A DNA stretch of 64,000 nucleotides from positions 62,001 to 126,000 of the forward strand of contig JAFCMP010000025.1 in the NCBI GenBank assembly GCA_017506865.1. Reading direction: 5' to 3'. Made by a program: the position numbers and the translations under genes. Below, in pieces: positions 10,062-63,850 of the stretch (position 1 is the first letter of the stretch; each line of letters opens with the position of its first letter). The stretch comes from Tribonema minus. Lineage: Eukaryota > Sar > Xanthophyceae > Tribonematales > Tribonemataceae. Below the pieces are notes generated by a model. It had not been told where the DNA came from. It saw only the letters and a program-made list of their open reading frames with translations, and ran no database searches.

Positions 10062-13000
10062 TACGTCAGTGACGGTCAACCCCTGCCTCAACAACACACT
10101 GGTGCACCCGCTGTCCCCCCCCCATTATGCCCAGGGATACCCCCTAGGCAGTGCCGCGGACCTGCTATTTGCTGCACGGTTTCAGAAGCCGGATGATCCA
10201 GGACTCCTTGGATCATGGCCCACCACTGACAGGAATGTGCGCGCGTTCATGGCGGACTATACGCTGACGCTGACGCAGGAGCAGTCTCGACTCGATGCTT
10301 ACAAGCAGATTAAGGGCACTGCAGATGTATGTGCATCGTGGAGTGGTACCGCAAAGCGCGAATTTTCTGCAATAGCTAAGCCTTGTACCAATATTAACTT
10401 GAAGTACTACTTTGAGTTACCTGTCTAGTAATTTGTGCCTGCCTAATTTGTGTCTCTGCAACTTGCGACAAGTGTGCATGAAGTGAGGCGCTATAATACT
10501 AACTACAGAGCTGTGGATTCATTGTCATGACTGACAGTCAGACATCCAGAAGTTTGCTGTGTGACACCTTGATGATCATGGCACTGCAGACGTACTACAC
10601 AATGTTTCTGCTGTCAGCATGGCCCGCGTGTACACATAGAATTGGAAGTATACTTAACACAGTACTTATGGACTTGTATCCAAAGTTTATAAAGGCCCAA
10701 GGGAGGCCGGGTTGCCTATGCAATCGAAATTTGTGTCAACGCAGCAGCCTAGTCTGCACGGCGCCCTAGGACCTTGGATACCGGCGCTGCAACACAGCCC
10801 AGCATTCGATACTATGATGCATACATGCACAGCCTAGACTTGCGTGCACTCAAGAGGACTGTAACAAAATTTAATGCCGAAGTTCTTCAAATTGGTGTGT
10901 GACGATTAATCTGACAGTGTACTGCTCCGAAGTGCGTGTTATTGCGCGCACATCATGGTATGCAGTGCGAATGTGCACCCAACACTTGGCCAACACATTC
11001 AGACCTCCGAGTCATTGAGCTTCTCACTGACCACCGCCGCCGTCCTCTGCTGGAGCGACCTGCAGTAACTGCACTGCAGTGCATCGTTGTTCCGGTCCAT
11101 ATCTGTACTACTACTAGTAGCTACAAGCGTGTCGGCATGCGCACTCAATTTTGTGGCACAACGGCATGTGCTGCACCTGTCTGTCAGTATACACTCTCAG
11201 GCTGACATATGTATACACCAACTTGGCATGACTTCTCCTGAATTAGATTCTAATTCAAAAATTTGATTTGCCCTCACGCCACAGCCTGAGCTCATTATAC
11301 AATTGTCTGCAGCAATTGCAATCTGAAGTCACTGTGCACCACTAGAACGTGTATACACCACGTGCAACTGACCTCGAGGATGTGCACCCAATGCCTACTA
11401 GTGCACATCATATGACACTTGCGCATCTCCCGACACATCGGCATTGTGCGGACGCGGCCGCAGCTGGACATCTTCCTCTGCAGCGACCTCGAGTGCACCG
11501 TAGTCGCCGATCTCATCTACCTGGCGCATGGCCCACGCTACGCCACCGTCACCCCTGCCATGGGCTACGTCCGCTTCGACACTACAGTGATCGGCCTGCC
11601 CATGCAGTTCATACAGGATTCCTCCACTATGAACCCAGTCATTGTGCCAATTGCCGAGAGCGACGCGTCGGCCACGCCCTCCATGGCGCAAGTGGCGTGG
11701 ACTTTCGATGATCCGCAGTGGGTAGAGGCAGACCCCATTTTGGTGTCATTCGGAGCGATGGTGCGCATGATCGCACTCTCCGGGAACAGCACGGAGGCAA
11801 GTCAGAATTTGTGCGCAGTTCATGGTAGTACTTGTAGATGTGGTAATATGAACAAGGGTACGGGCATGGGTATAGCTTGTCTGGCATCCGCTGGAGCGAT
11901 AGTGCACATGGTGGACACGCTCTCCAGGAACCGCATGGTGGTGAGAATTAGTGCTAACTGCGCCTCATGATGATAGGTACTGATGTACACATAGGTGTGG
12001 CATCCTTTGAACCACTGGCAGTTGCAACATCATGATGGTGCGTACAGTCGCGCTCTGGGCAAAGCGCTGACGGCTCCGCATGATGTGCCTCAGTGTGTGG
12101 GTGCTGGTACGGTCCACTACCATTGGATACAAGTTGGCGTTCTTCGGAGCGATACTGCGCATGGTCATTCACTGGACGCACGCAATATAGGGAAACAGCC
12201 TAAGCACATCGAGACGAGCCGCAGTCGTGAGTGCGCTTTGTGCACTACAGTAGCGCTGCTAACAGTTCCTGGACCTGAATTGTAAAAATTGCGGCACATC
12301 AACGCCGACCATATAGCACAACTAATGATCATGTTGGCATAACCTCTGTGCATTGTAATTATTGCCATACATGTGCGTATTGATGGGCATACATGACCAT
12401 GTGACACTGTTCAGGCTGAAGGCACTCACTCGATCGCGAGCCTTAGGTCTGAGGATGTCAATTGCGCGCATGCGACCGAATTGAGATTTGCAGATTCTGA
12501 AGTAGTGCCGCAGCCTAGCATGGAACTGATCTGCACAGCACAGAGCCAGCCAGCATGGTGCAGCAGTTGTACCTGAATATGATGCTGAAGCATTGAAATG
12601 AAAGTACTGGCTTATCTTTTCTAGGCTCCGACTCCCATTTTCAAGGTAAAACTGAAACGATGTGTGCGCGCATCTCACTCATCCTCAGCGTTCTGCGTTG
12701 CAGCTGCTGTGGTTTCTGGACAACTTGACTCAGTCGGGGCACGCTTAAGTATTCTGCCTGTGAGCATTCAGATTACAAATGTCTGTGTCCAGACTGCCGC
12801 GCATACTGGCAGTCGCAGATCATTTGCTCGCTCGCCTTCATGTCTAACTTCGGGAAGAACGGCTTCGCAACGCGTGTACCAAAGGGCGCAGCCGACGAGC
12901 TGCTGGCAGGGAAACGTAGATGGTGACGTATATATATAGCTGTAGCCTGCAGCTGTACGCTTTGAAATACTCATGTTCTGTATTGTATTGCGCTGCGGCA

Positions 13001-16000
13001 TACATCATGAAAGGCCTTGCGCTCCCTAGCTTTAGCTTTATGGGGGCACCAAAAATGGTATGTAGGGTTGCGTTTTAGTCATTCAACGTGAGTGAGGCTC
13101 ATATATAAAGTACACGGTTAATGCTCCGTCCGCATGCGATTGTGCAAATGGCCATCCTCCTGCCAGTGGGGAGCAGCACAGGGGTGCCGCAAGCGCTGAT
13201 TGCGCTTCATCATTAGCATCTTGAAGGTGTACTACAGTAGTGACTATATATAGTAGGGTATATATACCATATGGGTACACAGCATATGAACTACCGCTGC
13301 GTACTCCATCCAGGGCAGCTGCTCTGAGCTGCTTTAGGACTCCAGCAAGAGAGCCTGCGGATTGCCACATTTGATTTAAATTTGCACCTTCAAGTTGTGC
13401 TACGGGGGATTTGACAGTGACAGACAGTGCACATGTTTATTCCTCCGTGGAGCAGCACGGAGCGGAGTGTGAAATGTGCTGACAATCATAATGCTGTGGG
13501 TATGGGTACTAGTAGGGGTATAGCATGTGTGTCTGTCGTGCCTCCGACGCACTGAGCTCATGGACTTGCGCCGTGGCATGATCAGCGCTCATACTCATAT
13601 GATGATTGGGTTTGCTAATGAAGTGAGCTCCTGCCCGTGGAGTGCCAGTGGCCACGCTGCGTGAATATGCGTGCTTCTGCTTCTTCAAGTTGTACTCGTT
13701 GACTGCTGTCATACTCACAGACATCACATGGTATACATATATGCATACTGCTTGTGACGCCCTCAGGACCTGTTCAATTCGCTCCGCATCGGCAACTATA
13801 TGACGTCAGACAGGGAGTGCGTGAGCATCATCACCTTCAAGCATGACTGGATGGACCAGCAGGGGTGGGACACTTCGCACAATTGCATCAGCGAGTCGCT
13901 TTTCATATTTGACTCCTACTTCACGCAGGTGATGACCTGCGGCTGTCGCACCTGTTTGCCGGTTCACTTTCGCTCACAAGAACAAGACATTTACTCGGCG
14001 CCGTACTATCAGTACTTTTGGTGAGGGTGTCCGCCCCTAATGCGGGAGGCTATAAAGTACTGGTGAGTTTCAGCCACGGTGCTGCCATCAGCTTTGAATG
14101 GAAGCCTTAGAGAGACTGATGTTCTGCAGTGCACCACATTGAATGCGCAGATATTGCTGCGCGATGCGCGCCAGTGCGCTGCGCATCTTGTTATGTTTTG
14201 GGGTGTTGTGCCCCCCAATGGCGGGTGCTAGGCAGAACTGCGTGTGCAACGTGCCGGGGTTGTTGCCCCAGAGACGGCAGGTAGGCGTGGAGAGCTGCAC
14301 GCGCGGCGCCTGTCGCAGCGCCAGCTGAAACATCAAACCTCGAATCCCTATGACGCTGGTAGTTGGCATAGAGTGCTGGCTGAAGATACCTCATAGTTCA
14401 CCACCGTGCCCATTCAGAGTTAATACGCATTGCAGTTTTGGCGGTGATGACACGAATGTGCCGGCGTCGCCAAGTGACTGACTGTCCAAGCGCACTTGTA
14501 CAGGTACCCAAGACCCTTTTCTTGCTCACACACACTTTCCTGCCGCAGCACCAAGGTGGTTCTGTATGCGCTGGGAAAGCACGGCGACTCCTTTACGCAG
14601 TGCATGCCGACTGTGTGTCACACGGTGCCAGTTCAGTGAGCACAGCCTCCGTGTGGAGCCTTGCAGGCCAGCAAGTCGTAAACTGCAGACTTTCGTACAG
14701 TTTGCTCTGCCTTCGTGCCCTCTAATCAAACAGTTACCTTTCAGTGCCACCCCCTGCTGCGCCTCCGTCGAGAGCATATATGCTGAGAAGGCAACCCCGC
14801 ACTGTCCACCCCCTGAGATGGGCTGGAATTCAAATACGATGACAACCCAACCCTGCCCCGCTGACACCGCGCAGCGGCCACCGTGGTTGGAGATGCCAAT
14901 GATGTCAGGGCTTGAACATATACAGTATAGCACATGAGTCGCGTGGACTTCCACAACACTCAAATCTTAATTCAAACTGCGCACCTGCTTGCTTTCCGCA
15001 GGCGAACCTGCACTGGCCGCCGGCCCTCGAACTAAACGACAGCACGAAGCCCGCTGAGAAGCTCAGTGTCTTCACGCCGCTTGGGGCAGGCGCCGGCAAC
15101 TGGGACAATGCCGCCGTAAGCGTTGCCAGCTATGGCCGCACGCTCTTCTGCGACGCTGCAATGTTTCGTAACGTGCAGACTGTGGCGGCGGGGTCTAGCA
15201 GCTGCAGCATTGCAGACGGCGCGTACGCGGCGGCGCAGCCGGAGAGCAGCGAGTACGCGAAGGCGCAGCGGAAGGGTGACCATGACGCCCAACAGCTTGG
15301 GGGGCCGCCCAGGCCGTCGCCGCCGGTGGCGCTTATAATTGGCAACGCTGCTATCAGCGCGTGGAACGTGACGGAGGATAGGCTGCTGCAGCCAGAAAGC
15401 GTCAAAGTCGACGGAGGCCTGAGAATGGAGCCATATGATTACATGACGACGGACGGCGGGCACAACCCTATGCGCGGAAGCGCCGTGGAGGGGTCCTCTG
15501 TCGCCAATGTGGGCCCCGCGGAGGCGCTGCTGCGCCTGGTGAGCTCATGGCCGGTGTCACCTGCAATGGGGTTGGGGTCAGGGAGAATTGTTCGGATTGT
15601 TAGAGATTTCTTAGGGTTAGTAGGTCAGGCGCAGAAGACTTAGTTTTCCACGAGGATCCGGGGCAGGGCTAGGATTTGCGGCGTCGACGCATTTGGTGTA
15701 TAGCCTACCATACTAAGTAAGTGCTTCGTTGAAGCACCGGGACAGTGCGATGGCAGGTCCCACATCGTCTATGCACACCATGTCGGAGCACTGCTGCACC
15801 TGTTGCACGCTCCTTGAGCGAACTTGCTCCGTGGCAGGGCCCGCTGCCAGACAGTATAATTTCCATGTGAATGTCTGACTGCACAGAGGGCGCCCCATGG
15901 AGCGTTTGAGCATTGCTGTCAGGCACCCAGCGGCAGCGCTCTTTCAAAATGCGGGAAGCCGGCTTTGGCAAGGGTTTGCTCAGCCCTGCTAGTATGCTTG

Positions 16001-24669: not shown

Positions 24670-27600
24670 ATCGGTACTCTCCATCGTCCTCCAGCCGGTC
24701 AATCACAGCACAAATGACGTCCTCGTGCACTTCTGCGCCCTCATCCAGCAGCTGCTCAACTCTGTCGAGCTCCGCGCAGACAGCAGCTCTGTTGAGCTCA
24801 TCGTCGTCACGCAGAAGCGCTGCAAGGGGGGATGAAACAAGTGATTTCTTGAATCGTGAAGTGAGTGAGTTCATGAGGTTGATGTGCAGAAAGCTACGGT
24901 GCAGATGCTGCTCGCACTGGATGGGGTGATAGTGGCACCTAACCCTAACCCTAACCCTAACCCGAACCCTAACCCTATAACAGGTGATGTTACGGAAATG
25001 CAGATGCCACGTGGCGATGCTGAAGTGATTGTCAGTGCGCATTGACACACTTTTGCGGTGTTTGCAAGACACATGTAACTGTGGTAGGATGCCATCTGGG
25101 CTTTTCACGCCCTCAGCAAGAATTTTAAAAAAACAGTACAAATCTCAAACCATCCGCAGTGACAGTGTCCGTTGCTGTGACATTATGCCCACAAGACCCA
25201 AGTTTGAGAGTTATTCTGTATAGTCCGGTGACCTGTGCTTGTTGGCATGAATGATTTGTAGTACGGGCATGCTTCTTCAGATTCAGCTGCTGGCGAAGTC
25301 TGGCGGTTCTCTCTTTCAGCGCTGTTCTGTGGCATTTATAACTGTAAGCAGCATGCTGCAGTTTCAACTGAGGTGCAGCTGTGCTGTGTAGCAGGTTCTA
25401 CCGCATACAATACTGGTCAGTTAACAACAAGAAGCTCTTTTGAGACGATGCCTGCACTGTGCATGTGCATGAAGCTTGTTGAATTGACTACCTCCATCCG
25501 CATGCAACTCATCTTACAGATGAAAGTCTACTCTGGACCAGCTACCATACAATACATTATGTGTATGTAACCAATTGATAACGGTCAAAATGCAAAATGT
25601 CTTCAAGAGGCTTGACAAGGATCCACACACTCCACCATGATTGCCATCAGACGCCCACGATACGCTGTGTGATCATTTGAATCAACAGCACAGGTCAAGC
25701 CCTGCCCTCGCCAGTGCAAAGAGTGTTAGGGCGATCTAGCCCTGACCCTAACCCTACCCTAACCCTAAGCCTAGGCAACCTGCATCGATGTAGCTCATGC
25801 AGCGTACCTGCAGCTAGGTCATTGTACAAGCGCCTCGTTACAGCCTGCAATAACAAGAGAACAGACAAGGGTGAACATCAACAAGTGCAAGTGAATAAGT
25901 GCAAGTGGAAGTGGCAAGTGTGGCTGTACGCAAGACTTGAGATGGAAATGCAACGTCCTATGTACAAGCACTATACTCCCTTTTGTTCAGATTTGAACAC
26001 CTACTGGTGTGACTTGAAAGCGCTGCCACTCGACGAGCGATGTGATTCTGCTCGTGCCACCTCTGCATGTCAGGCCACATCATGTGTAGTATCAGGGCAT
26101 TCGTGGGGGCATGTGAAGGTCCAACCCTAACCCTAACCCTCACCCTTCATTGCCAGCGCAACACCACAAGCAAAGTAAATGTAATTTGTGCGCTGCACAT
26201 TCATCGCATTCCACTTCGACATAATCGCGACCTGCTGCTCGCTGCCATCGTCAGCAGCCTCAGTGCACTCAGCCGCGCTACTGCTGTAAGCCCTGGTCTC
26301 ACGTCCTGCCGCCACCTCATCGAAGAAACTTCAAGCGCTCATCACGACAACTTCAAGCGCCAGCGAGACGCACCTGCAGATTCTGTTGGTGTTGGAGCAT
26401 CATCAGGGGCGAGACGTGCGTGCCCAGGAGGTCATTCAGGTCCTGCCGCCATGAAAATGGCGTTGCAACTCCTCCAATGCCGCCACCACTGCTGCCGCCG
26501 CTGCCACCACTGCCGCTGTCGTCGTCGCCGCCGTAGCCGCTGCCGCCGCCGCCGCCGCTGCCGCCGCCACCGATGTTGCTGCCGCCGCCGCTGCAGCCAC
26601 CGCCCTCTTCGCCGCCGCCACTGTTGTCATGTGGCCAAACGTTAGCGTCGCTGCCAGCATGATGCAGAGCGCTGCTGCTGCCATTGCCGCTGTCGCCGCC
26701 TCCCTCTTCGCCGCCGCCACTGCTGTCCTGTGCCTGAGCGCTGCCAGCACGATGCGGAGCGCTGCTGCCGTCACTGCTGCCGCGGCGCTGAGCACTAAGG
26801 ACGGTGCTGCTGCTGCTGCTGCTGCTGTCATGATGCGAAGCGCTGCTGCCGCCGTTGCTGCCGCGGCGCTGAGCACTGCTGGTGCCGCTGCTGCTGCTGC
26901 AGCGCCGGAGCTGAGCGCTGCCAGCGGAGGGGCTGCGGCACCAGCCGAGGAGCTGGTCGTGCTCGTTGAGCGTCCAGGCGCCGCACACGGGGCAGCACGC
27001 GATGGGGAAGCGCGTGGCCGGCCCCAGCTCTCCGCTGAACCACTCGGCGATGCAGTCCTGCAACGCGAGTGACGGCGCGGCAGGCGGCGCAGCGACGTGA
27101 TATGTGGTGTCAGGGGCTGCCATGTTGTGAGTGAGCTCAGTGAGATTGTATGTGCTGCAGAACGTAAAAAATAAGCAGCAGCGCCTCCTGGCCACCCACT
27201 ATATGCATATGTAATTGGGGTGCGTGTGGTTGCCCCAAGCGCTGCGCGAGACCACTCGGCGATGCAGTCCTGTGACACGAGTCGCGATGCAGCAGGCGGC
27301 GCATCCGATTCGTCAAGCTTTCCAAATTCACAGTGGGGCTGCCAGCTGGTGCTGTGAGTGGGCGCGGTGAGATCACAGGTGCTGCAGAAACACGCATCAA
27401 GACACAGCGGAAAGTTGTAGTCTGTTCACCCATAGAGCATACGTTTGAAGCTTGCTTTTGATTGGGGTACGCGCGGTAGGCCCCAGCGCTCCGCTGAAAC
27501 AGGCGTCGCATCGGCATAGTTGTCAGAGTCACGGGCTGCCGGGTGCCTTGCGTGGGCTTGATGAGATTGCACGTGCGGCAGAATATTACTTCAGAAGTAT

Positions 27601-42500: not shown

Positions 42501-44121
42501 CTTGCTGCGGCGCACCGACCCAATGCGCGTCGCCATTGGAGTACGTACGACGATCGATACGCTCAATGTAGTAAACATACACCTCGAAGCACGCTTTCAC
42601 GTACGCCCATACGCTACGCGCGGCGCCGCAGATCGTCGCGCTGCAGGAGGACCTGCGCGCGCGCGCCGACGCGCAGCCCGTCGCTGATCGCGCCCCCTGC
42701 AAATACACAGACCTCCTAGCACGCTTCCACGTACGCTCACATTCTTGCGGTACGCTCATATGTTTTGCACGCGCGGTGCCGCAGATCGCAGCGCTGCAGG
42801 AGGACCTGCGCGCGCGCGCCGATGCGCAGTCCGTCGCGGAGCGCGCCCTCTCGCTGCGCGCCGCAGAGGCAGAGGGGCGCGCCGCCGCCGCCGCTGCCGA
42901 CGCCGCAGCGGCGCGAGCGGAGCTGGTGGCGGCGGCGGGGGAGGTGAACGCGGCGCGCGCTGCGGCGGCGGCGGCGGAGCGGCGGGAGGCGGCCATGAGG
43001 GAGAGGGTGGCGGAGGCGGAGGGAGCGCTTAGCGGCGCGCGCGACGCCGCTGCGGGTGAGGATTGTTTTTGGTGTAGCAGCGCTCAGGTGGCAGTGGCAG
43101 GTGATGAGAGATGAAGTCGAAGTGCAAACCACGAACATATGCGGCGTCAGTGCAGCAGCCGTTCTGTACCGTGAAGGCACTGTGGTTTTGTTTGAAGTTA
43201 GCAAAATGTTGAGTTACTGTTGACCTACTGACAGGCGCAGCAGACGGCGAGTGTTGCACGGTGAGCTTGTTTGTTGCAGCAGCGCTCAGGTGGCAGTTAC
43301 TGCAGTGTCTCAAGCCGCGCACATGCTGGGTGGTGTGTTCAGGCGCAAGCACGCAGCGTGGACTCCAACAGCCATGCAACTTGAGTTTGGAGGGTCCGCG
43401 TGTACTAGGAATGTGGTATCGACCTCCTGTTGAGCTGTAAGCGCGGCTGCTCGAGTCAGTAACGCCAGTGGCGGAGCGGCGCGGGGGTCCGCCATCTGAA
43501 TTTGAAGTAATTATTGAAGTTGATGTTGTCGCAGACAAACACGGATTGCGGGTTGACGACTGATTGTATGCTGCAAAGGTCAGCCCTCAACTTGTGCGAG
43601 CCACGCGAACGCCCGCCAGAGCAGTCCAAGGCGCTGACGCCACGTTCTGCGCCGCGCTGGCCCCGGTGCAGATGCTGCAACGGCGGCGCGCGCAGCCGAG
43701 GCCAAGGCCGTCGCGCGCGCGGCAGCAGCAGAGCGTGCCGCCGCCGCAGCGCGCTCCGACGCCGATGCGGCAGCGCGCGCCGCCGATGCCGCGGCCGCAG
43801 CGCTGCGCGCTGAGCTCGATGCGGCGCGCGCGGAGGCGAAGGCGGCGCTGGCGCAGGCTGCTGCTGCTGCGGCGGCGGCGGCAGCGGCGGCGGCGGATGC
43901 GTCCCAGCCGTCGTCGCGGCGCGCGTCGGCGTGGGGCGACGCGGCGACGCCGCAGTCGGAGCGGCAGCGCTCAGGCGCGGAAGGCGCGCCGCACCAGCAG
44001 CAGCAGCACCTGTCGCAGGCGGACATACTGCGCGCTACGCTCTTGGGCGGTGGCGGCGGTCTGACGCCGTCGCCGCGCTCGGCTGCGAAAGCACTGTTCA
44101 CGAATGGGGACGGAAGCAGCA

Positions 44122-44152
<31 letters not shown>

Positions 44153-47646: not shown

Positions 47647-50600
47647 TCATTGCCCAGAGTCAGCCCTCCGTTCGCTACCCTCGCCTAGCTGCACCTTGCT
47701 GAGCATCGCTGCACTATGCTGAGCACTGTCACCTGCCGCCTCAGGGTCCTCCAAAGCCCCCGGCTCAGCATCGAAGCCGCTGAGATCCCCACTGGCTACA
47801 AAGGGTACTATGCATTTACACTGTCCAAGCAGCTGGTGTGCGCCTGGCAGGCCTGATGCCTTGTGATCGAGCAGCGGTGTAAGCATGGATGGCGAAAATC
47901 CCGGCGGTGGTTGATAGCCCTGGCATACCACAAAGCTCTCGATGCTGCAGGAGGGCAACAGTAAGAGACGAATGGCTTTGTCGTTTGAGCCAGTGGTTCC
48001 ATGCGCAACCTGTCTAAGATCCTGAATTCTTCTTGATGTGCCAGGAATGCGCCATGGTCCTACAGTGATTAAACAGCTCATGGCACAAGTCGTGCTTACC
48101 CTTGCAGTAGATAAATCGGCATGGGACAATGCCCGTGCTCAGCAATGTTAAACACGTGCTGCACTTTATGAGGATGGGGGTGGTAAATCACTGAAGGTGC
48201 ATCAGTGTGGAAGTATTGGTTGTTCTCTTTCCTCTTGGAGGCTGAACCGTAGCTGGCCTGGGTCAGAAGCGCTTGCTTCCAGCTGCCAGGCTGAGCCTGC
48301 TTTGTACAGGTACGCTGTGAGCACGCGCATCAGAGCTGCGTGTCTTGCAGATTCATAGGGTTCTTGCAGATTCATAGGGTTTACGTCCCTCAAGCACAGG
48401 CAAATGATGTTGCATCATGTTCGCTGGGAGCGCAAACGAGCTCAGATTTTTGCCGTCCAGCTTGCTACCAGGGTCAACATGCACACTTCTAATAAGGTGT
48501 ACCAATGCTCCTCGATGATCAATGTGAATGACATCACTGATATTGATTGTACACCAAACAGCGACGCCACCGCGCTTTGGACTGCGTGGTATGACCATAC
48601 AACTTCAACTGTAAAGGTGGCACACATCGGTGAACGATGCATCCACACACGGCTTCCAGAAGATGTGAAGAGCGGTCCATGCTGAGCACTGGTGTGTCTC
48701 CTCAGACATTTCTTCGAGGTCTACTGACTGCAACTGTAACACACCTCCCGTTGTAGTGAATCAGGGGTGATCGGACCTACAACCTACTACCAGTGAGCTG
48801 TTTTGCGCGTTGCCTCACCTGCTTTTCCTGCTGCTATTGGGCTTGGCCACCGCCACGCGCTTGAAGATCAGGCCTACTGCCGATAGTGAGCTCTGTATTT
48901 TTTGTAGCACTGGCTCACCTGCTGTTCCTGCTGCTCTTGGGCTTGGCCACCGCCACGCGCCTGAAGAACAGGCGCAGCTGGCTGTGCAGCAGCGATACGT
49001 CCTTGCCGCGGAAGATCTTGGCCACAAAGATGCCGCCGTCGGCGAGCACGTGGGTGGTGATGTTGAGAGCTGCCAGCAGCAACTGAGCAATGACACAGCA
49101 AAGCAGCGAGGGCAAGAGAGCTGATGATAAAAACAACAGAGCAATGCTAACAGCAGTGCACAGGGGGAGGGAGGGGGGGGGGCAGGAGAGCTGAATGTTG
49201 AGGAGCAACAGAGCAATGCTAACAGCAGTGCAGAGGGGGGCAGGATAGCTGATAATGTTAAGCAGCAAGAGAGCAATGCTAACAGCAAAGCGGGGGGGGG
49301 GGGGGGGGGGGGGGGGGGCTGGATGGGGGCCAAGAGGGCTGAATGTTATGGAGCAACAGAGCAATGCCAGTAGCAGCGGCAGACAGAGGCTGAGAGACCT
49401 GAATGCCAAGGTGCAACTGGCCAGCGACAGCAACAATACAGACAGATTGAGGACGCTGGATACCAGGAGCAAATAAGCAGTGACAACGTCTATAGATTAG
49501 ATTGGGAGGTGACTGTATGTCAAGGAGCAATTGAGCATGTGACGCTTACAGAAAAGGAGAGGCCAGCCAGAGAGCTGAATGCAAACGAGCAACTGGGCAG
49601 TGATGGCAACAGTACAGAGACGCCAAGAGAGTTGAATGCCAGCGAGCAATTGAGAGCAATGCTAAAAGTAGTACGGAGAGGCCAAGAGATCCGCGCACTG
49701 GTAAAAGCGTCAGTAAGCGACTGACCAGTGCTGGCACAACGTTGAAAGCGAGCAATGCCAACTATAGTACCGAGGGGTCAAGAGAGCCGAGCACTGGTGA
49801 AAGCCATGATCCAGTCCACAAGCATCTATCTGCCAGACGCAATTAGGGCTCACATCTAAGCACGTGCCGACATGGCAAGGCACCAAACGGCATATAATGT
49901 GATATGATTGTGCTTAGTAAGGCTTCAACTCGCAATACGAAGAACGAGCGTGGTGAGTCATTGGTGGAGTGCACTTCTGCACAGTGCCCAACATGCTGCA
50001 CACTGTGATAATCGTGGCGTGCTTGAGTGGTAATCAAGCCTCTGCGTGCTCTTGCTTCAACGTCAACTGCGAGCATGACAGCACCAGTACAGGGCTTGTT
50101 GCAACGTGTGGTTGAAACGCTACAGAAAAAAAAGAGTACAGCATGGAGGCTTCCCACGTGGTCCCCCACCGTAGTACTAGCTCCGCTCAAGGGTGCTTAA
50201 CTTCAGCGATCGGACGAGAGCTGGTGCTGTCACCATGATATGGCCGTACCCATAGCTTTGCGTGAAACACCAAATGTAACTTGCTGTGTGCCAAAGCCAA
50301 CACGTAGGGTGAGTAGTAATAGTTGTCATCACATGTGAATCAACAGCAGCCTCATGTGCGCAATGGCTGCAGGCTTCAGAACGCATGCAATGAGCAGCTT
50401 GGCCGCATGTAGCTGCAGCACTGACATCAGCGGTGAGCAGTGTAAAGGATTTCGAGGAGCCCACTGCTCACATGGACGCATGGGTACTGTACATCACAGT
50501 GTCGCAACTTGCGCAAGGTGGTCCAGTGGCTCCTCCGCTGAAGCTGCCGTCGCCCATGATTTGCATGGCTTGCTGCATTTGTACGTATTCGTGGATGCTT

Positions 50601-51410: not shown

Positions 51411-54400
51411 ATGAAGCCGGAGCTGGTCTGGACCGACCATGTACCGCCCAGGGAAGATCAGCACATTGGCATCAATGACCTGTGCTTCAGCCCAGATGGC
51501 ACACAGCTGGTTGTTGCAGCTGGCAGCCGGATTCTGGTTTACGACGTGCAGGGAGGGGAAGTGGACCTGCAGCACTCTTTGCGAGGGCACAAAGACACTG
51601 TATACACTGTCGATTACAGCAGCGATGGCAAACGATTTGCCAGTGGAGGTGCGGACAAAACCGTGATAGTGTGGACGAGCAAAGCGGAGGGGATCCTGAA
51701 GTACACCCACGGAGACAGCATTCAGAGGGTGGCGTACAACCCTTGCGCCAACGTACTTGCCTCATGTACCGGCATTGACTTTGGACTGTGGAGCCAGGAC
51801 CAGAAAAGCGTCAATAAACAAAAGGTGAGTGTCTCAGGTCGAACATAGCGAAATTTGCGATGCAGCTGTGTGCCCACAGATGTTGCTGCAGAAAACACCT
51901 TGGTGGAACAGCATGACTGGGACTGTTATTTGCTGCCCTCCATTGATGCAACTTCATGGTCGTCATTTAAATCTGTTGTAGTTGTGCTGTTGGAGTTGGC
52001 GCCAGAGTGATGTCCATGGTAGCTAGTTTTAACAGGCACAATCAGCAGACTCTTGCCTGCACTGACAGCGTGACTGAGGCGGACGTCAGCATGCGCTCGC
52101 AGCTGCATTGTAATGATACACCAGGGTTACCTGGCGTGATGCTGCAACATGCCAGAATGTATGGTCTGTGTCTCCCCCCTGTGATCGGTTGGTGCCGCAG
52201 CACCGACCGCAGCGCACACGCATGCACATCAATATTTCTAAGTTACAGAAAATTATATTAATGTGGGTTGACGGCTTGATGCTTGCAATGACCCTACAAG
52301 CAGCAGCCATTTCATGCTTATCTAATGCCTGGTCTCATCTTCGACTCACATTGTGTCCCTGTTTCATCACCGTGCCGTAATCCTAACGTGCCAGTTGCGG
52401 GTGCAGCGCCGCTGGCGACAACTCTTGCAGTGTGCACGCAATCTTAACACACGATGTCATCTGCTGTGCATGTGATACTCTTGCTATGTTCCTAGCGACG
52501 TACAGGTGCATGCTAAGATCGTGAGCATGTGCTGCTCTTGCTATTTGCCTAACATCTTGCAGGTGCATGCTAAGATCACGAGCGCTAGCTGGAGCAACGA
52601 TGGGCAGCACCTGGCGCTTGGGTTCATTGATGGGAAGATCATCGTGCGCGATAAAGAGGGGTGCGTATTCTCAAACGTTGAAGCAGTGGCTGTTGTCAAG
52701 GGCACTCAGGAATAAAGGCTGTCAGGCAGAGCTGCTCCTTTTTGTGTTGGTTGCATTTCAATGCGTCATATTCCAACAGGCTACTGTACCTTGTTGCTTT
52801 TGTTCAGGCCACCTGAATGCTGGTAATGCAGCAAGTGTGTCTACGGCTTGCTGGCTCTGACTTCACCGGGCTCATCCTACTGTCGCGGGATTCATGACAT
52901 GACAGCTAACGAGATTCAACGCCGCTGATTCGAGCTTGGCCTGAAGCATCGTAGCCTACATACCTACCCCCTGCTGCACGTAATTCTATCACTGCCGCTG
53001 AACCTGCAGGGTGGAGAAAGTGACCATCTCCCGGGGGGGCCCTATCTGGAGCCTCAACTGGAGTCCACTGCCGACTGACAGTTACAGCGTCGCAGCCAGT
53101 TACAACAATGACGATCCGGAGCTGCTGGCGGTTGGGTGCTGGGACCAGACGCTGTCGTTCTACGACATGAGCGGAGAGCTGCGGCACAAGGAGAAGAAGG
53201 CGAGTCATGGATTGAAGTTGAGGTGCACGTACTTGTTGCCATTTGGCGATGTCATTTACAGGCGATCGCAATGAGACTTTTTCAAGGTGTGCACAAAACA
53301 CGTGGAGATTCTGGTTGCAACCTGGACATCCACCATCTGGGCTTTTTCGCGCCCTGAGCGAGCATTGACAAGAATTACGTGTACTTGTTGCTATGAGATG
53401 AGCGGCGAGCCGCAGTCCCAGGAGAAGCAGCCAAAGTCATGGCGTAATAAAAAAGTCCCAGTACTCTACTTTACGTGAAAGCGGATGTGTGAAGAGCAAT
53501 ACACTTTGAGCAGTGGCATTGTTGCGAATAGAAGTAGCTTTCAGAATGTATACTTCACAGAGCATACCTCCAGTGTTGTATACTCCAGAGGTGTGGAAGT
53601 GTGCATGTATGTAGGAGTTTGTACAAGAGTAGCACTGGCAAGCTCATGGCCATGAGGTCAGCGCATCTGACAGTCAATGCGGGTATACGAGCATGCTTAC
53701 ACTTGGTGCATCCAATACGCGGTGCTCAGCAGCTCTGCTCCCTGAACCTGCACCTGGATGGGCTTGAAGTGAGTGACGCAGCAGTCCTACCCTTTATTCA
53801 TATGCGTCAGCGCCATGTAGTGACCCCTAGATTCAACCTGCTGCTGCAAAGAAATGGCACTGCCATCGCTAGCGCTGACTCCCCCCCCTCCCTGCCGCCC
53901 CCCCTGATCACCCGAATGCCCAACTTCAACTTGCAGCTGGGCTTCCCCTGCACCGTTAGCCACTTCGCCGCCACGGTCGCGCCACATTAACATCGCTGGC
54001 GCTGACTCTCCCAACCCCCCCCCCTTGCCACGTCTGCCCAACTTCAACTTGCAGTTGGGCTTCTTCCCCTGCAGCGTGAGCCACTCCGCCGGCGGCGACT
54101 ACCTCATCCTCGCCGGCAGCGATCGGCAAGTCACCATTTGCACTAGGGACGGCGCGCGCCTGCAGACCGTGTGCGCGCCTAAGAAGGGCTGGGTGTGGTC
54201 GGCCAAGGCCAGTGGCAGGGCTCAGCAACAGGCAGGCGGCGGCGGCGGCGGCAGCGGCGGTGGCGGCATGCTAGTCGCACTTGGCTGCGACGACGGCACT
54301 ATTGACGTGTACCGCCTGCAGGTATGTATGTATGTGTGGGCGTATGTGCTACTTGAACTAGGTGCGTGTTTGCGCTGCAATGTTGAAGTTGAAGTCCTGG

Positions 54401-57400
54401 TTGGACGCTTGTCAGGTGCGCGTGATGAGGCGTGCACTGTTGAAGTACCATGCCAGCGCCGCGATCCTGCTGCTGCCGTTTCTGTTGTTCTCAGTATGTC
54501 AAGCACTGACAGAAGCACATTGATGACAATGACCAGCGTAACATGAAATGCATTTTGGCCGCCGTTACAAGTGGCACGCCTCAGTCATCAGCCCACATCT
54601 CACTGGGCTGTGCTGTCAGCCAGAATATTAATTTCACCGCCTGCGCGTGAATGCGCTACATCTTCAGGCCACATTGTTGTGAGCGTTGCCCACCTCCATT
54701 TCTGCATGCTGGAAGTATTTCTGTATATGTATATGTACGCCAGGAGTACTATTTACTCAGTAATTGTGGCGCAGTAGCAGGGCTCTATCGCCCACTGTGC
54801 ATGGTGCACCTACAATGGTTTCATGCAACGTGCTTGCAGTGTACATGTCAATGACTCACGCCGCCAAGTGACTCGAAGCCCGCCTCATGTGGTGTGACTA
54901 CTACTGTACACATCTGTTGAAGTTGCACAAAACCTGCGAGCTGCATTGTAAGCGCTGCCGTCAGTGTCAATCTTGAGAATTCGCATCATGGGGCACTTGA
55001 CTAACAAGCAGTACATCACATCAGGCCCCATCATAGCAGCTTTGATTGTGGTTTTATTCGCTGCCTCTGAGGGCAATGACCACCCACACATTCATCACCC
55101 ACACACTGCTGCACGGCACTTGGCCATCCCTGTTTTCAATTCACTGACTGCTGAAGGTCCATACCCCCCCCCCCCCCCTGTTGAAGGACCATGATTTCAT
55201 TTCACTGAGTGCTGAAGGCACATAGCCCCCCCCCCCCCCCCCGGACTGCTGCAGGAACCCCCACACCACGAGCAGTTTGCGCAGCGCGAGAGGCTCACAG
55301 ATGTGGTCGTGTCATGCCTGCACAGCAAGGTCGACACCAAAACAGGCCGCACAACAGCTATTGTCATTCTTGTTTATAGTACTGCTGAACGCCCATGCCC
55401 CCCTCCCTCGCAATGCGGCACCGACAGCTGTGTGCGCCGCACTGGAAGCAGCTTGCAGCGGGAGGCCCTGACGAACGCTGTCTCTTTTCAGGCGCCCCCG
55501 CCTCCCTCCCCCCCCTACTTGGCTACGCGTCTTTTCCTGCTGCTGACCCCCACCTCCCCCTCCCCCCCCCTCACGACGTGGCACCCCTGCAGCTGCGTAA
55601 GGTGTGCGCGTTGCTCCACGAGCGATTTCCGTGCCTCTGACGGACACAAATGCTTTTTCAGTGCGGCTCAAGGCCCATACCCCCCCCCCCCCCCTTCCCC
55701 GCCCGCACAGTGAACACGGAAACAATTCAAAACATCGTAGAGCTGTAGGTGACAAGGTGCGGTTAGCCGTCAGTGCCTTCCACCAGTAACCGTGGTCGCC
55801 GCTACTGCAGCAATTGGGCACGAGTAACATATTCTCCCCGCCCACCCCCCCCTCTTCGCAACTGCAGCTGCGCGAGATCTGCGCGCTGCACCACAAGCAG
55901 TTCGCGCAGCGCGAGGGCCTCACAGACGTAATGCTATTTTCAGTGCTGCTCAAGGCCCGTACCTCCCCCCCCCCTGACTGCTGAAGGGGCCATACCCCCC
56001 CCCCTCCCCGCAATTCGGCACTCTGATCTCCCCCGCAGCTGCGTGAGGTGTGCGCGCTGCACCACGAGCGGTTTGCGTGCTCCCTGATGGACGTAATGCT
56101 ATTTTCAGTGCTCATACCCCCCCCCTCCCCCCTGCACAGTCCTCACATATTCTCTCCCCACCCCCCCCTCCCTTTCGTAACATGGCACTCGTGCAGCTGC
56201 GCGAGGTGTGCGCGCTGCACCACGAGCGATTCGCGCAGCGCGAGGGGCTCACAGACGTGGTCGTGTCGCACCTGGGCAGCGACCAGAAGGCGCGCATACG
56301 CTGCCGCGAACACGTCTTGGGCGTTGCGCTGTATAGGGACAGGCTGGCGGTTCAGCTACCGGACCGCATCAACGTTTATGAGGTAAGATTCTCAAACTAC
56401 TAATTCCAACCGAAGATGTTTGTCATAATTTATGGACTTCTGGTACATGTAGACATACATTACGCCGGCGGCAAAAGAAGGTGCGCATACGCTGCCGCGA
56501 GCACGTCTCCGGTGTCGCGCTGTACAGGAACAGGCTTGCGGTTCAGCTGCCAGACCGCATCAACATTTATGAGGTGATGTGTCACTAATTTATATACTTT
56601 TGATACAGTACTGCTTTGAATAAGACGCCGTGCGTGTGTACCTCGTTGTAGATATGCCGCGAGCACGTCTCCGGTGTCGTGCTGTACAGGGATAGGCTCG
56701 CGGTTCAGCTGCCTGACCGCATTAACATTTGTGAGGTGGTGCGCTCAAAATAACAAATTCCAAGTACCGTCTTGTTCGATATCATGGACCGGGTCCAACA
56801 TTTGCGGCAGTTTTAACAGCAGGACCCAAATCATAGGTCATCCTTTTAACTGGCCAACCCAAAATGTTGGACAGGGGGGTTCCAGTACCTATCATGCAAC
56901 TACATACTCAGTAACTTCTCTGTTCGTGTGTCTTAAACATCATCATATGACTGTATGCCATGATGATGCAGCGATTCAATCGGCTGGAAGCATGCAAAAA
57001 CTGCAAGCACCATACATGCTTGAAGCAACAGAAGTCTCAGCCAGCAGCATGACCCTGCTGATTGCTGGAGGAGGTTTTCTGGGCTTTTCAAGCAGGCACT
57101 CCGTCGTCGCTTATCCTAGCAAATGGTCGTGGTTCCTTGTGAATCAGGCACCGCGACCGCGCCCTCTCTTCCTGCAGCAACAATTTGCAGAGGCAGTCCC
57201 TCACGCCACGCCATGACCACAACCGCAACCAATCTCAGTCTGGTGCAACAGGTGTATAACGCGTAGGAAGCCAAGAGTGCGTTGCCTGCCAGCTTTCACA
57301 GCTGCCTCTGCAGCGTTCATGGCTTTCTTAGCCTTCGTGGCCTGCCGCCGCCAAGCCACCAACAACAACACCAACTTCCCGGAGGTTGAAGTTTGAGTTT

Positions 57401-60400
57401 AACTGGTAATCACGCCACGCATGCTGGGTTCTGAGGCCGTTCCATATATAGCGGTCACCCTTTCAACTGGCCATCCCAAACTCGCGGACCCCCCCCCTTT
57501 TTACTCTCGTACCGCAAATGTTGGACCCGGTCCATGATATCGAACAAGACGGTATAGGCGTACGGAGTAATATGTATGTACTTGGGGGTATAGACGCTCG
57601 TTAAACCAGCAGCCACACCGCATCAATGTTTACGATGTGATGTCATCTACTTGTAGAGACTTTGGAGTACGATCATTACAACAGACTACTTCAAGTGGCG
57701 ATACTTCAAAAGTGTTGACATGCCACGATTACATCTCCGACGTAGCGCCAGACAGGGGCATGTGTGCCGTCTCAGGGGGTGCGCCATCACAGCAGCGCTC
57801 ATTGACTGGCATGCATCGATGATGCTCACTCTACTGATTGTAAATCTTCCGATTGCTACATATTGGCACGCATCGATGATGCTCAGCTAGCGCGCCGCAA
57901 CGACGGCTCTGAGCTTACTGCAATTCGCTTATGCTTATTGATGTTTTTTGTGGCATAATGCTCGGCTAGCGCGGCGCGGCTACAGCTTCAAGCTGATTGC
58001 AATTTTCTTACTTCAGGGTATGTTTGTTTTTGTCACGGCGTCGATTATGCTCAGCTAGCGCGGCGCGACGACGGCTTTGAGCTGCACTACCGCCTGCGGG
58101 AAAAGGTGCCGGCGCCCGCGGAAGCAACGCCAGCAGCGGCAACAGGCGTAGAAGACAAGGCGCCTACCGCAGCGCCAGCGTCGACGACGCCGTCGTCGCC
58201 TGCTGCGACGCCGCCGCCGCTACCACAGGAGGTGAGCCGAGATGCATACGTTCTGTTTACGCTTGATTTTTTATTTTGAACTCTGCGCTGACGCTCATGT
58301 GCATGAGATATTGGTGCCAGGCAAACCTTGACCACAAGTACTTGACGTATGTGCTTGAAGTACTTGCTGTATGTACATGAATTACTCAATACTTAGAAGC
58401 TTAGTTGTACGTATCCCTAACCCTGCTTTTGTGCTGACTCAGCGGTGACCGTACTCGTAGCAGGTCTATTTTTGTCATTACGCTAATTGGGCAAGTGCTG
58501 CGAGGTGCTCGTTGCTACGGCTACTGTAAACCCCAGTGAAGTTGGGAAATGCTTTTAGTTGAAGTGTTGGAAAAGCGGTGTTGCACACTACCAGAGGCAG
58601 AGGAGGCTAAGAGGCATCGCCAGACCGTGGGTGCTGGGCTTACCAGAGTGAACATCACTCAGCACACAAAAGAATGTAACCATCATACGGTAGAAAGTAA
58701 CTGTCAGTTCCCAGAGAACGCGCTATAAAACTGCTGGGTTCAAACTCCCCCCGCACCAGATGATTGTGACAGAAGCAAGAACTGTTCAAGTATATTCCAA
58801 CAAGAGTGTCACCTTGTGTGATGAGCAGAAGAGCAGGCCATGCACAGCCAAGTCGTGGCGTTGCACCAAGACCTGAACACCGAGGTGTATTTCTTGGACG
58901 GTGGTGTTGGCCTGTTGCTTACAGGGTGTGTGACAGAAGGTGTCAGTCATGAAAAATGTTGCTCGCAACAGAGCAGGACTAGGTCTAGCTCCACGCCAGG
59001 TTGTGCTTGGTCGTGGTAAATGCAAGTGCTGTTTTCACATGAGTGGATGAACGAAATGGGGTTGTGGGGGAGCGCAGTCTCAATGTGCTATCCAGAAAAA
59101 GCACTGATGCGTACTATGCTGCCAGGCTCAATGCTTATCGTGCACGCACACAGTTGAAGTTGAGTACACATGATTGAAGTCAAACCCGCGCCTGGAGTAC
59201 ACACTGTGGGTCTCATGTGCAATGCTGCATACAGGCCGCAACACCGAGCGCCCATCCGATATACTCATACTCATATTCATATACTCATTACTCATACTCA
59301 CTCGTGCTCCTTGCGCAGTCGCGTGGCCCGCAGCTTCTGGTTACCACATCACACCTAATAGTGGCCAGGCGCGAGCGGCTCCAGCTACTGGATATGACCG
59401 GCGCCAAGGTGATTTAAAAAGTGCTAACTTGAAATACCAAGTTTTGCTAGCTTTGACCGAACGCATTAGATATTAGGGTGAAGCGGAAACACAATCTGCT
59501 CACTGTTGACGACAAGCAGAAATGCTTTTTGTCAGTGCCTCAATCGCAGCCAATTGCAAACCAATGGCGGGCAGACATGTTCAGTGCACAATGCCAGTTG
59601 CAATCTGACTGCCGAAAACAGTGCCCATCCTTCATAAGACTTGCTCTCTGAGCATCCCGAATGTGTCGTCAGCTTACAGATCGAGGATGCGCGAAGAGAG
59701 GTGAGAAGCCATGACTGGCAACAGGCCGCTCAAACGCTGGATAGAATAACAATATCAATCATGTTATTATTCCCAACAGTGTCGTCGTAAGGGCAGGGGG
59801 AGGATGACACAGCAGCCCTGCGTCTCTTGGCTGCTGCTGGGCGTTGCAGCTGATGGGTCATCACCTAACTCTAACCCTCACTCTGACCCTGTATTTGTAA
59901 TTGATCCTCGCCGAAGAGGCTGGTCTGTGCGTGCTGCTGGGCACCTGTGAAATTGCTGAATGCGGCAGTGCGCAGAGGTCCATTTGCTTGCTCAGTCACA
60001 CTGTTTTACAAATCCAGGGCCACACGCTCGTGAGTTGCTGGTAACCCTGACTCTAAGCTTGCACACGCGCGAAGCGCGACCGCTGCAAAGTATTAGGGTT
60101 AGAGCGAGGGCTTGGGCAAGGGCGATTCCCGCTTGAGCGCGCAAAAGTCACTATGTTTATGTTTATGAACAAAGTACGTGTTTGTGGCCTGTCGTGCCTG
60201 GCAGGTGCATGACTTGTGTTGAAGTTGAAAATTATGCTTTCATTACCCCAACTTTTGCCCACAACAGGCGCGTGAGTGGGTACTGCATACTTGTACAACT
60301 GCCACGTGACTGATTCCTGCGTTCACGGTAATGATGTCGTGTTCATGAGTTCTGCCCAAATTCATGCACGCGCGTGAATGGGTACTGGACGCTCGCACAA

Positions 60401-63400
60401 CTGCCGTGTGACCAATTCCTGTGTTCAAGATGCTGATTTCAAATTCGCGCTTTCTGCCCGCATGTTCGTGTTCATGATCTCTGTCCGCAATTCATCTGCA
60501 GGCGCGTGAGTGGGTACTGGACGCTTGCATAACTCCCATTACCGATTCCTTTGTTCAAGATGAATTCATCTTCATTATTTCTGCCCGCAATTCATTTACA
60601 GGCGCGTGAGTGGGTACTGGATGCTCACGTACCTCCCATGACTGATTACTGTGATTAACATGATGATTTCATGTTCACGATTTCTGCCCGCAATTCATTC
60701 ACAGGCGGGTGAATGGGTACTGGACGCTCGCATAACCACCCCATGACTTATTGCTGTATTCAACATGCTGATTTCAAATTCATGCTACATACCTGCCGCA
60801 TATTCATGTTCATAATTTCCGCTCGCAATTCATGCGCAGGCGCGTGAGTGGGTGCTGGATGCTCGCATAACTGCCATGCGCGTCTTGGGGGGTCCTCCTG
60901 GGGAGGAGGCTCTCCTGGTAGGGCTAGAAAACGGCGCAACTCTGCAGGTATGCGGGGGGTCCACGCATGCCAGCGCGTCAACGTCAAAATACAGTACAAC
61001 TGTTGAAGGTACTACATGGCATGGTTCACCCACAGTGAAGCTGATCTTGAGTAAAGCTGAGTGATGTTGAAGAAAGAGCGATGGACGGCGCGCTTGTGAA
61101 GCAAGGATGTACGCAGCAGGCTAGCAAAACGAATATACTCTGCAGCATACCTCATGATGTTGGTGGGGATGGCAGGCTCATTGTTCTGTGCACACAAGAT
61201 CTGGCGTGCGTGCGCATGGGGTTAGGTTTGGCCAACCCTAACCGTAACCCTAGAAGCGCACATGCGAGCATTCCTGAGTTGCTGCGCTGCAAAGCAGCCA
61301 ATTTTTCCTCCTACATAAGCGCTCTTACATGAGCGCACTTCTTTGAAGTTGTTTCTCATGCTCATGAGCTGCGCACCACCGTCACTGTGCTGCATTGCTT
61401 GATATGAACTCCAAAAAAGTAGCTCTCTGATTGATGCAGAGTCAAATCGTTGCTAGCCCAACTCGTTGACACAACAAAAACAGTGTCAAAAGGCTGCTTG
61501 CTCATGCTGTAAAGGTGCCTGTTTGCTATCACGGGTGGTTTATCAGACTACGCATGTGCTTACGAATGATGTGCCAGCCTCGATGGTGCACCAATACATG
61601 GCTCCCTGGAATGAATGCTATGCTGCACTAGTACATGCTGTATGTGTGCGTGCGGCGATGTGCTTGCTTCAGCAGGCACGGGGTCCAGGGCGGAATGCGA
61701 TACCTGTACTCAAATCAACACATCTTTTGCATGGGATGAGCGTGGAAACCTTCATTGCCAGCAACATGTGCATTCTGAATCTGCATCGCCCTATGAACGT
61801 CACTGAATACTTCATGTCATCAATACGCCCATTGGCTTTGTGCGCATTATGCAGGTGTTCATCACCAACGCCTTTCCCATGGAGCTGATTAAGGTGCGCT
61901 GCCCATGCTCTTTAGAAGTATACAAGTGCTTTCAAGTACGTGCATATACGTTTTACTGCAGTCATACATTCAAGTATGTCTACACACCCATGGAGCTATT
62001 CAAGGTGTCCAGCCCCGTTGCAGCGTTGCGATCAGGGTGAACTTCAAGTTGAAGTAGTCCTACAGGCGCGCGCCCCATGGAACTGTTCAGGGTGTGCAGC
62101 CCCGTTGTATCGTTGCAATCAGGGTAATGTAGTCTTGTAGTCCTGTAACGCATGCGTATACCTGCCTATCATATACTTCGGAAGTACACCTACCTGTTGC
62201 TAACGCTGGCACACTGCATGAGTAGCAGCAATGCCGCCATTGTGAGGTTCTGCTGCTCACAGGCGCCCGTCACAGCTTAAGCTAATCACCGTACTTTGAC
62301 AGCGATGACGCAATTAGCACTGTTCCTCCACTTCTGATGTGTCATCGAGCGAGGTTCAAAGCCAGAGTCAGCAATTGTGCGTCGCCCTGCTTTGTGTGTG
62401 CATGCAAATGTGTTGCGCGGCGCCCGTACAGGTCAACACAAGTGCCTGTGAGGCCTCCAGTAACAGATGCAGTTAACAAGCCCTGCGTCCCCCCCCCCCC
62501 CCCCCCCCCCCATGCACAGGTGGACGGTGCCGTGGCGGCGTGTGACATCAGCACTCTTCCCCATGTCTGCTTGAAGCTAGGATTAACGTTACCCCCCTTC
62601 CCCCCCCCCCCCAAATGCACAGGTGGATGCTGCCGTTGCGGCGTGCGACATCAGCTTGCGGCGGCAGAGCGTGGCAGTGCTCGACTGCAACGAGAAGCTC
62701 ACCGTCTTTGACCTGGCCACGCGCAGCGTCACCTTCCAAGAAGCCGGCGTCACCAGCGTCGGTGCGTCCCTGGTGCATGTTGAAGTGGAATAACTTCAAG
62801 TTGCTTTGTGGCAGTATTATGGGACATCTTCAAGTTGACTTTGTGCGTCTCTGAGACATGTTGAAGTGGAATGGGACATCTTCAAGTTGACTTTGTGAGC
62901 GCACGTGCGCCATCTCAAAGGCCAATGGTCAACATTTGCGAACCTCAAGGTTTTTGAACGAGTACCATGCAGGCACCTCAGCGTGGTGTTCTGTATTTAC
63001 TAACCCTAACCCTAACCCTAACCCTACCCCTCGGGCACCTTTTCTGTCGGTATGTTCAATGAGCAGCGGACGCAGCGACGCTTGCCCCTTTTCTAAAAAT
63101 TGGTGTGCTACCAGTTCTGCTGTCAGTCCAAGGCGTGTATACATTGGATAAGCGTACGGCAGACACCGCCCCTTCATGGAATGCTGTAGGTATCGTGACC
63201 ACATACCACAATAGCCCTCAAACATTACTTGCGGTATGATAACATGCTTATGTCCTTTGAACTACAACACATTGGTACTTTTGTGAAACGTATACACGTG
63301 CATGTACTCATGTAAATCTGTGTTGGTATCCGCTCGTGCACAGCCTTCAACAGGGAGGTGGAGGAGATGCTGTGCTTCACCAGGAACGCGCCAAGTGGCG

Positions 63401-63507: not shown

Positions 63508-63559
63508 GTAGGGACAGCTGTGCAGTGTGGATTCACAGACTTGTTCTTTGAAGTACATT

Positions 63560-63850
63560 ATCCACAATGAGCGCAAGGTAGGCACAAGCATTGCAATGAG
63601 GAGGCAACAGTTTGTGGAAGCTGCAAAGACACTTCAAGTGCAAGGTACAGACAGGTGTGAGGCGTACAACACACATCCTTGTGATGTACTGTGAAGTACA
63701 TGCAATGTGTTGTGCAGTGTATGTGTAGTGTATGCATAATGTATGCACAAGCACCTCAATGTTGATGCAACAGCTCATGGATTTTTGCAAAGGTGCTTCA
63801 AGAGCAAGGTTCCAGGCAGCCGTGAGGTGTGCAGCACTCTGTACATTTCA
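63560..63850 (+). repeat. Downstream echoes of IFT122 exon 11 donor edge
   Basis: The donor junction GCAGCAAG-GTAGGGACAGCTGTGCAG recurs as GAGCGCAAG-GTAGGCACAAG (63,571), AAGTGCAAG-GTACAGACAGGTGTGAG (63,636) and AAGAGCAAG-GTTCCAGGCAG (~63,801). The next true exon is not visible before the window ends. Confidence 0.75.

What the first reader, a model, noticed from the sequence alone, without database searches (positions are those of the whole stretch)
10062..63850. Exon-edge 'echo' arrays fill introns of at least five genes on both strands
Beside exon after exon, decayed tandem copies of the splice junction (30-130 nt of exon plus adjoining intron) are found only in the neighbouring intron: upstream for acceptor edges and downstream for donor edges. 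Periods are about 55-200 bp, with 1-9 copies. I see this in IFT122, FTSJ1, the TMF1-like gene, the RING gene and the left-hand membrane gene. Tandem duplication across a junction is a known route to intron gain, but I know of no description of serial junction duplication as the main way introns grow across a genome. It would also flood genes with decoy splice sites. Mechanism and generality are inference; the copies are seen directly.
Basis: partly seen in the sequence, partly recalled or inferred. Interest (0 to 1): 0.93.

Follow-up and report, generated by a model that had tools for sequence, protein, structure and literature searches.

The report
Introns growing by duplicated splice junctions
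In the genes examined in this alga-like genome, about three in ten exon edges have one or more decaying tandem copies of themselves inside the neighbouring intron, which suggests that local duplication across splice junctions contributes substantially to intron growth here.

Summary
In 70 homology-mapped introns of 10 dynein genes on 8 contigs, 42 of 140 exon edges have a sense-strand copy of the junction in their own intron. Controls are clean: 0 of 140 in reverse complement; 0 of 74 in the intron on the exon's far side (near side 16 of the same 74). IFT122 has echoes at 10 of 20 edges; ab initio exons in random stretches at 26 of 126.

Best reading: tandem duplications (mostly 60-300 nt, median offset 142) straddle a junction. 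Splicing keeps the outermost copy, so the inner copy becomes intron and decays neutrally: mismatch 8.9/10.5/16.8% at codon positions 1/2/3, intron part 18%, splice dinucleotides intact in 31 of 40 copies (about 33 expected). Recognisable echo copies make up 17% of the dynein intron sequence.

Local duplication is common in all noncoding DNA here, so part of the pattern is background seen through conserved exons. Junction-spanning duplication is known from single intron gains; my searches listed no report of it as a genome-wide growth process. "Main route" and mechanism remain inference.

The parts
60264..60839 (+). acceptor echo array in IFT122: five decayed copies of intron end-CAG|exon start, spaced about 100-135 nt, upstream of the true acceptor
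60840..60947 (+). IFT122 exon whose 5' edge is echoed
   Evidence: PDB homology; edges
56197..56382 (+). IFT122 exon echoed on both sides: acceptor-side copies at offsets 158, 318/329, 600, 954; donor-side copies at 191 and 353
56476..56763 (+). two donor-side echo copies downstream of the 56383 donor; the first begins as coding-like sequence that itself matches PDB IFT122 chains
55264..56196 (+). intron stretch holding the acceptor-side echoes of the 56197 exon
53864..54054 (+). acceptor echo of the IFT122 exon starting 54055 (offsets 120-127)
52468..52562 (+). acceptor echo of the IFT122 exon starting 52563 (offset 57)
62489..62622 (+). acceptor echo of the IFT122 exon starting 62623 (offset 103, 88%)
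48919..49082 (-). FTSJ1 exon 2, repeated sequence in both neighbouring introns
   Evidence: splicing supported by protein P0001
48811..48918 (-). donor echo of FTSJ1 exon 2 (offset 100, 92%)
49083..49376 (-). diverged acceptor-side repeats of FTSJ1 exon 2 (71%)
36573..36827 (+). TMF1-like predicted exon, acceptor and donor echoed at offset 268
41388..41543 (+). TMF1-like predicted exon, acceptor echo (offset 258) and donor echo (offset 149)
42785..43055 (+). TMF1-like predicted exon, acceptor echo (offset 149)
44019..44375 (+). TMF1-like predicted exon; donor echo at offset 241, and donor-side copies at 44406-44476, 44561-44626, 44743-44807
26942..27057 (-). predicted exon with an acceptor echo (offset 212)

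Best explanation
Short tandem duplications (mostly 60-300 nt) arise often throughout this genome. When one straddles a splice junction, the outermost splice site (upstream donor, downstream acceptor) keeps being used, so the protein is unchanged and the extra copy, holding a piece of exon plus the splice site, falls inside the intron. That copy then decays as neutral sequence and can be duplicated again, giving arrays; the intron grows by one unit each time. Shown: the copies, their orientation and side, their spacing, decay close to neutral, and (one gene) outer-site use. Inferred: that exon definition (pairing of sites across a real exon) keeps single-edge copies silent, and that DNA repair or replication slippage makes the duplications. 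Left over: edges carry about 2 to 6 times, in some simulations more, the echoes that uniform duplication predicts; possible reasons are more births at exons, exon-to-echo gene conversion, or growth from once-short introns.
For: 70 mapped introns: straddling echo at 40 of 140 edges, in 32 of 70 introns. Sense 42 of 140, antisense 0 of 140; far-side intron 0 of 74, near side 16 of 74. Offset median 142. Mismatch at codon positions 1/2/3 8.9, 10.5, 16.8%; exon part 12.1%; aligned intron part 18.3%, near the 1:2 ratio expected if the copy is neutral and exon positions 1 and 2 are fixed. The 40 intron nt next to the junction are similar beyond chance in 31 of 42 exon-detected echoes (42 of 160 edges tested), and the far intron part of the unit in 14 of 22, as a whole tandem unit requires. 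L048 shows a young case: about six 161-nt units at 98% identity that include 45 nt of exon. Splice dinucleotides intact in 31 of 40 copies, about 33 expected. P0001, 97% identical FTSJ1, is colinear with outer-site splicing. Random stretches: 26 of 126 predicted edges, in 10 of 15 loci.
Against: Uniform duplication with exon-constrained decay predicts edge-to-interior ratios of 0.33-0.65 or 0.17-0.39 (computed from its rates); observed 2.1, bootstrap 1.2-3.5. Settings with hotter edges reach the edge rate but give 16-26% for intron windows 20-60 nt from the edge, where 8-11% is seen. Age-matched counts: 26 edge (85% identity or more) and 18 interior births (80% or more), against 20-34% edge births that I reckoned by hand; the youngest pairs are few (92% or more: 4 edge, 3 interior). 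Of 36 high-identity pairs that I tested (of 62 found), 19 show no significant similarity in the rest of the period. With exon-only detection, intron mismatch (24%, gaps ignored; random about 31%) is more than twice the exon mismatch (9.4%). Transcript-type evidence for one gene only. No comparison of orthologous introns was possible.
Confidence: 0.75

Rival explanations
1. Pure background: duplication is uniform over the genome. Edges look special only because the exon copy does not decay (so pairs stay visible longer) and because duplications inside exons are removed by selection.
For: Noncoding windows at least 200 nt from predicted exons also have near copies: 7.8% two-sided, 4.8% one-sided within 500 nt; null about 0.06%. 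Intron windows 20-60 nt from edges are not enriched over the interior. Decay is close to neutral. GC-rich noncoding windows are duplicated more often (2.6% to 8.4%), which could raise GC-rich exons somewhat.
Against: One-sided decay gives at most about a factor 2 (my reckoning); edges reach 16-20% against 4.8% in random loci, 3.4-4.1 raw. Uniform simulations undershoot the edge rate 3- to 6-fold, more.
Confidence: 0.3
2. Exon-to-echo gene conversion: tandem echoes are old, and repeated conversion from the exon keeps their exon part fresh, so they persist and look concentrated at edges.
For: Exon part 9.4% vs intron part 24% mismatch, a ratio above 2; 19 of 36 tested high-identity blocks lack similarity in the rest of the period.
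Against: In one search the ratio is close to the neutral 2; the high-identity blocks were picked by strict scoring, which inflates the contrast.
Confidence: 0.2
3. The echoes are functional: alternative exons, decoy splice sites or enhancers kept by selection.
For: Splice dinucleotides are often intact (31 of 40); one IFT122 donor-side copy still begins as coding-like sequence.
Against: Codon positions 1 and 2 of the copies differ by about half the intron divergence, as neutral copies should; the FTSJ1 protein P0001 omits the echoes.
Confidence: 0.06
4. Introner-type mobile elements inserted at splice sites.
For: Periodic insert-like units in introns.
Against: Each echo matches its own exon edge; edge windows match introns of other genes at only 0.1-0.3%. 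Telomere-like filler is not tied to the spacers (3 of 26 vs 2.06 expected). I did not align spacers between genes.
Confidence: 0.03

Closest known systems
[quoted passage not shown] vertebrate and fission yeast cases and the potato RdRp gene, all as told in PMC4974935, passages seen)
   Same: Tandem duplication, in the potato case across an intron-exon boundary, changes intron structure and brings splice signals along.
   Different: Those are single events that create a new intron; here existing introns appear to lengthen, repeatedly, at about three in ten edges of the mapped dynein introns.
Atypically long introns of Ectocarpus and core-Reinhardtinia algae (PMC12477816 and PMC8226300, passages seen)
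   Same: Same intron size class: Ectocarpus autosomal median 524 nt, here 630 nt in 70 dynein introns. PMC8226300 says the advantage of long introns remains unknown and speaks of an unnamed mechanism driving intron length.
   Different: The passages I saw mention no junction echoes; they treat transposons, tandem repeats in general, and sequence constraint.
Novel Drosophila intron positions by sliding or tandem duplication (seen only as a title in the reference list of PMC3488318)
   Same: Tandem duplication at intron borders.
   Different: About new intron positions, by its title; the paper itself was not read.

Membership tests
Tandem-duplication intron modification | direct, same-strand copies next to each other | tested here: met
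   sense 42 of 140, antisense 0 of 140; median offset 142
Tandem-duplication intron modification | copy spans an exon-intron boundary | tested here: met
   40 of 140 edges
Tandem-duplication intron modification | whole unit duplicated (period = unit length) | tested here: inconclusive
   far intron part similar in 14 of 22 and one clean young array, but 19 of 36 tested high-identity blocks lack it
Tandem-duplication intron gain (new intron) | a new intron is created | not testable with these tools
   needs orthologous gene structures in relatives; my evidence concerns existing introns
Introner elements | same element family in introns of many genes | tested here: not met
   edge windows match other genes' introns at 0.1-0.3%; spacers were not compared between genes
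Duplicated or mutually exclusive exons | copy carries both exon edges and coding constraint | tested here: inconclusive
   37 straddling alignments hold 15-105 nt of exon and positions 1 and 2 decay, against a full constrained exon; but I did not score each copy for a second splice site, and an echo can be long enough to be predicted as an exon (L018)
Minisatellite arrays | arrays placed without regard to exon edges | tested here: not met
   edge peak against interior; background arrays do exist

The most novel reading that the evidence does not exclude
Exon edges are true generators of intron sequence in this lineage: tandem duplications arise (or are kept alive by conversion from the exon) preferentially at splice junctions, so introns grow outward from exon edges, and silencing of single-edge copies lets this run at near-neutral cost genome-wide.
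Probability: 0.35. Interest if true: 0.82.

Novelty: new variant of a known kind. Interest (0 to 1): 0.68.

Why it matters
Why some algae with fairly compact genomes carry long introns is treated as open in PMC8226300 (passages seen). A process that leaves dated, sided, exon-anchored scars makes intron growth measurable: each echo would record one lengthening event, its age and which splice site won. It also offers a natural test of how a spliceosome ignores strong duplicate sites, and of whether exon definition makes junction duplication neutral.

Tried and rejected
Unsupervised exon finder drifted into tiny segments and was discarded; a supervised one trained on mapped exons replaced it (121 of 140 mapped edges recovered, on its own training set). 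One search (viral contigs) found no relative. The alignments overlapped themselves; the analysis was redone. Telomere-like repeats as filler between copies: rejected (3 of 26 vs 2.06 expected; 26 of 37 records used, spacers 10-160 nt). GC content as sole cause of hot edges: noncoding rate runs from 2.6% to 8.4% over GC bins, so a partial cause at most. Dropped before counting: 7 of 36 junctions and 6 of 47 (missing small exon, poor splice site or stop codon). One search crashed after the IFT122 output; FTSJ1 was redone. One search took 36 of the 62 pairs.
Full report
WHAT WAS CHECKED. The window lies in a 158.2-Mb, 554-contig assembly of an intron-rich eukaryote. The closest protein to the window's FTSJ1 is a EukProt sequence with a Trinity-type name at 97% identity; among named relatives, Choristocarpus (79% over 68% of the query), Chrysoparadoxa (70%) and Ectocarpus (73% over 73%) rank high, but fishes also reach 70%, and the best IFT122 hit is unnamed at 49%. 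A stramenopile alga near brown algae is therefore a weak inference.

IFT122. PDB homology gave exon segments; splice sites were chosen by consensus and open frame. Of 20 edges, 10 have a straddling copy in the adjacent intron: acceptors 8 of 10, donors 2 of 10. The stretch 60264-60839 shows five copies of the junction before the true exon (one search shows the sequence), spaced about 100-135 nt, with longer periods of 230 and 338 as well, so the array may have grown by single- and multi-unit duplications.

OTHER WINDOW GENES. FTSJ1 exon 2 has a donor echo at offset 100 (92%) and a diverged repeat over its acceptor (71%). The 11 ab initio exons of the window have echoes at 12 of 22 edges (score 34 or more); the four plus-strand exons in the TMF1-like region carry 6 of 8. 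The left-hand gene is weakly supported: one donor hit at score 42. I did not test the names TMF1-like, RING or membrane gene.

GENERALITY. Pfam dynein domains gave exon-level matches across the genome. From 31 fetched loci I placed 83 junctions by profile continuity and kept 70 (29 of 36; 41 of 47), from 10 genes on 8 contigs, intron length median 630. Donor dinucleotides: GT 62, GC 8. Straddling echoes: 40 of 140 edges, 32 of 70 introns. By a window criterion 42 of 140 edges match their own intron, 0 of 140 its reverse complement; exon-only windows match the far-side intron in 0 of 74 and the near-side in 16 of the same 74. In 17 random 10-kb stretches, supervised exon prediction gave 126 usable edges in 15 stretches; 26 are echoed, in 10 stretches, with the same peak at the junction.

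PROFILE. In the 70 introns, 40-nt windows centred 0-20 nt inside the exon match the intron in 27% (donor) and 29% (acceptor); 60-90 nt inside, 7% and 0%; 20-40 nt into the intron, 9% and 8%; intron interior 13%; other genes' introns 0.1% overall.

DECAY. In the 40 echoes, mismatches to the exon are 8.9, 10.5 and 16.8% at codon positions 1, 2, 3, and 18.3% in the aligned intron part. If exon positions 1 and 2 hardly change, the copy has diverged by about 10% and the intron, changing on both sides, by about twice that. Splice dinucleotides survive in 31 of 40 copies; about 33 are expected at that divergence (my reckoning). So the copies behave roughly as neutral sequence and their splice sites are not visibly purged. 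A caution: with exon-only detection the intron side is more diverged (24%, gaps ignored, random pieces about 31%, against 9.4% in the exon).

UNIT. Offsets have median 142. The 40 intron nt beside the junction remain similar above chance in 31 of 42 and the far part of the unit in 14 of 22. L048 has a young array of about six 161-nt units at 98% identity that includes 45 nt of exon. These support whole-unit tandem duplication. Against it, 19 of 36 tested high-identity pairs (of 62 found) show no significant similarity in the rest of the period; strict scoring inflates this contrast but may not explain all of it.

ARE EDGES SPECIAL? Local duplication is frequent everywhere: 8.6% of windows in the 17 random stretches, 3 window flanks and the window have a copy within 300 nt (null 0.06%), and 4.8% one-sided in DNA at least 200 nt from predicted exons. 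Edges reach 16-20% in the same one-sided test. One-sided decay accounts for a factor of up to about 2 (my reckoning), leaving about 2-fold. Simulations of uniform tandem duplication with constrained exons give edge-to-interior ratios of 0.33-0.65 and 0.17-0.39 (computed from its rates); observed 2.1, bootstrap 1.2-3.5. Simulations with hotter edges match the edge rate but overshoot the intron windows beside it. Age-matched births: 26 edge, 18 interior; among pairs of 92% identity or more only 4 edge and 3 interior. Possible causes: more births at exons, conversion, GC content in part, or a history of growth from short introns, when any unit must touch an exon.

SPLICING. P0001 (303 aa, 97% identical) is colinear with FTSJ1 exons 1-2-3 joined at the outer sites. 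This is one gene. That exon definition silences single-edge copies is inference; [quoted passage not shown]

SHARE OF INTRONS. Recognisable echo copies cover 7,405 of 44,469 nt (16.7%) of the dynein introns, all local duplications 24.6%. Older copies are beyond detection, so this is a lower bound, and 'main way' is neither shown nor excluded.

KNOWN WORK. Tandem duplication across an intron-exon boundary is documented for a single new intron in potato (PMC4974935, passages seen), within the Rogers tandem-duplication model. Long introns of Ectocarpus and Chlamydomonas relatives are reported without an identified driver (PMC8226300, PMC12477816, passages seen). Searches listed no paper, by title or start of abstract, on serial junction duplication as a genome-wide process; the lists were capped and most subscription papers are not held, so this is weak evidence of absence.

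Noticed in passing
window 3328-8632: Tandem array of a 1,772-bp unit, three copies at 98.6% identity, without ORFs of 120 aa or more; a large recent duplication of unknown nature.
   Followed up: no
window 24938-24977, 25740-25773, 63000-63031 and introns of many loci: Telomere-like CCCTAA repeats are scattered through the DNA read: CCCTAACC 172 times on both strands of 360 kb against a median of 10.5 for 8-mers of the same composition; present in 26 of 70 dynein introns, not tied to echo spacers.
   Followed up: partly
70 dynein introns in L022-L052: GC-AG donors are frequent: 8 of 70, none of 10 IFT122 donors.
   Followed up: partly
G000:C90:58283-66058, G000:C146:532202-540681, G000:C523:656249-666564: Some dynein heavy chain genes seem poor in introns (open frames up to 1,685, 1,377 and 1,291 aa) in a genome where their paralogues have many.
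   Followed up: no
L048:1206-2244: Young array of 161-nt units at 98% identity that includes the start of an exon; a place to look for copy-number variation between strains.
   Followed up: no
window 56469-56570: A donor-side echo in IFT122 that still reads as coding and matches PDB IFT122 chains; a gene finder could take it for an exon.
   Followed up: partly
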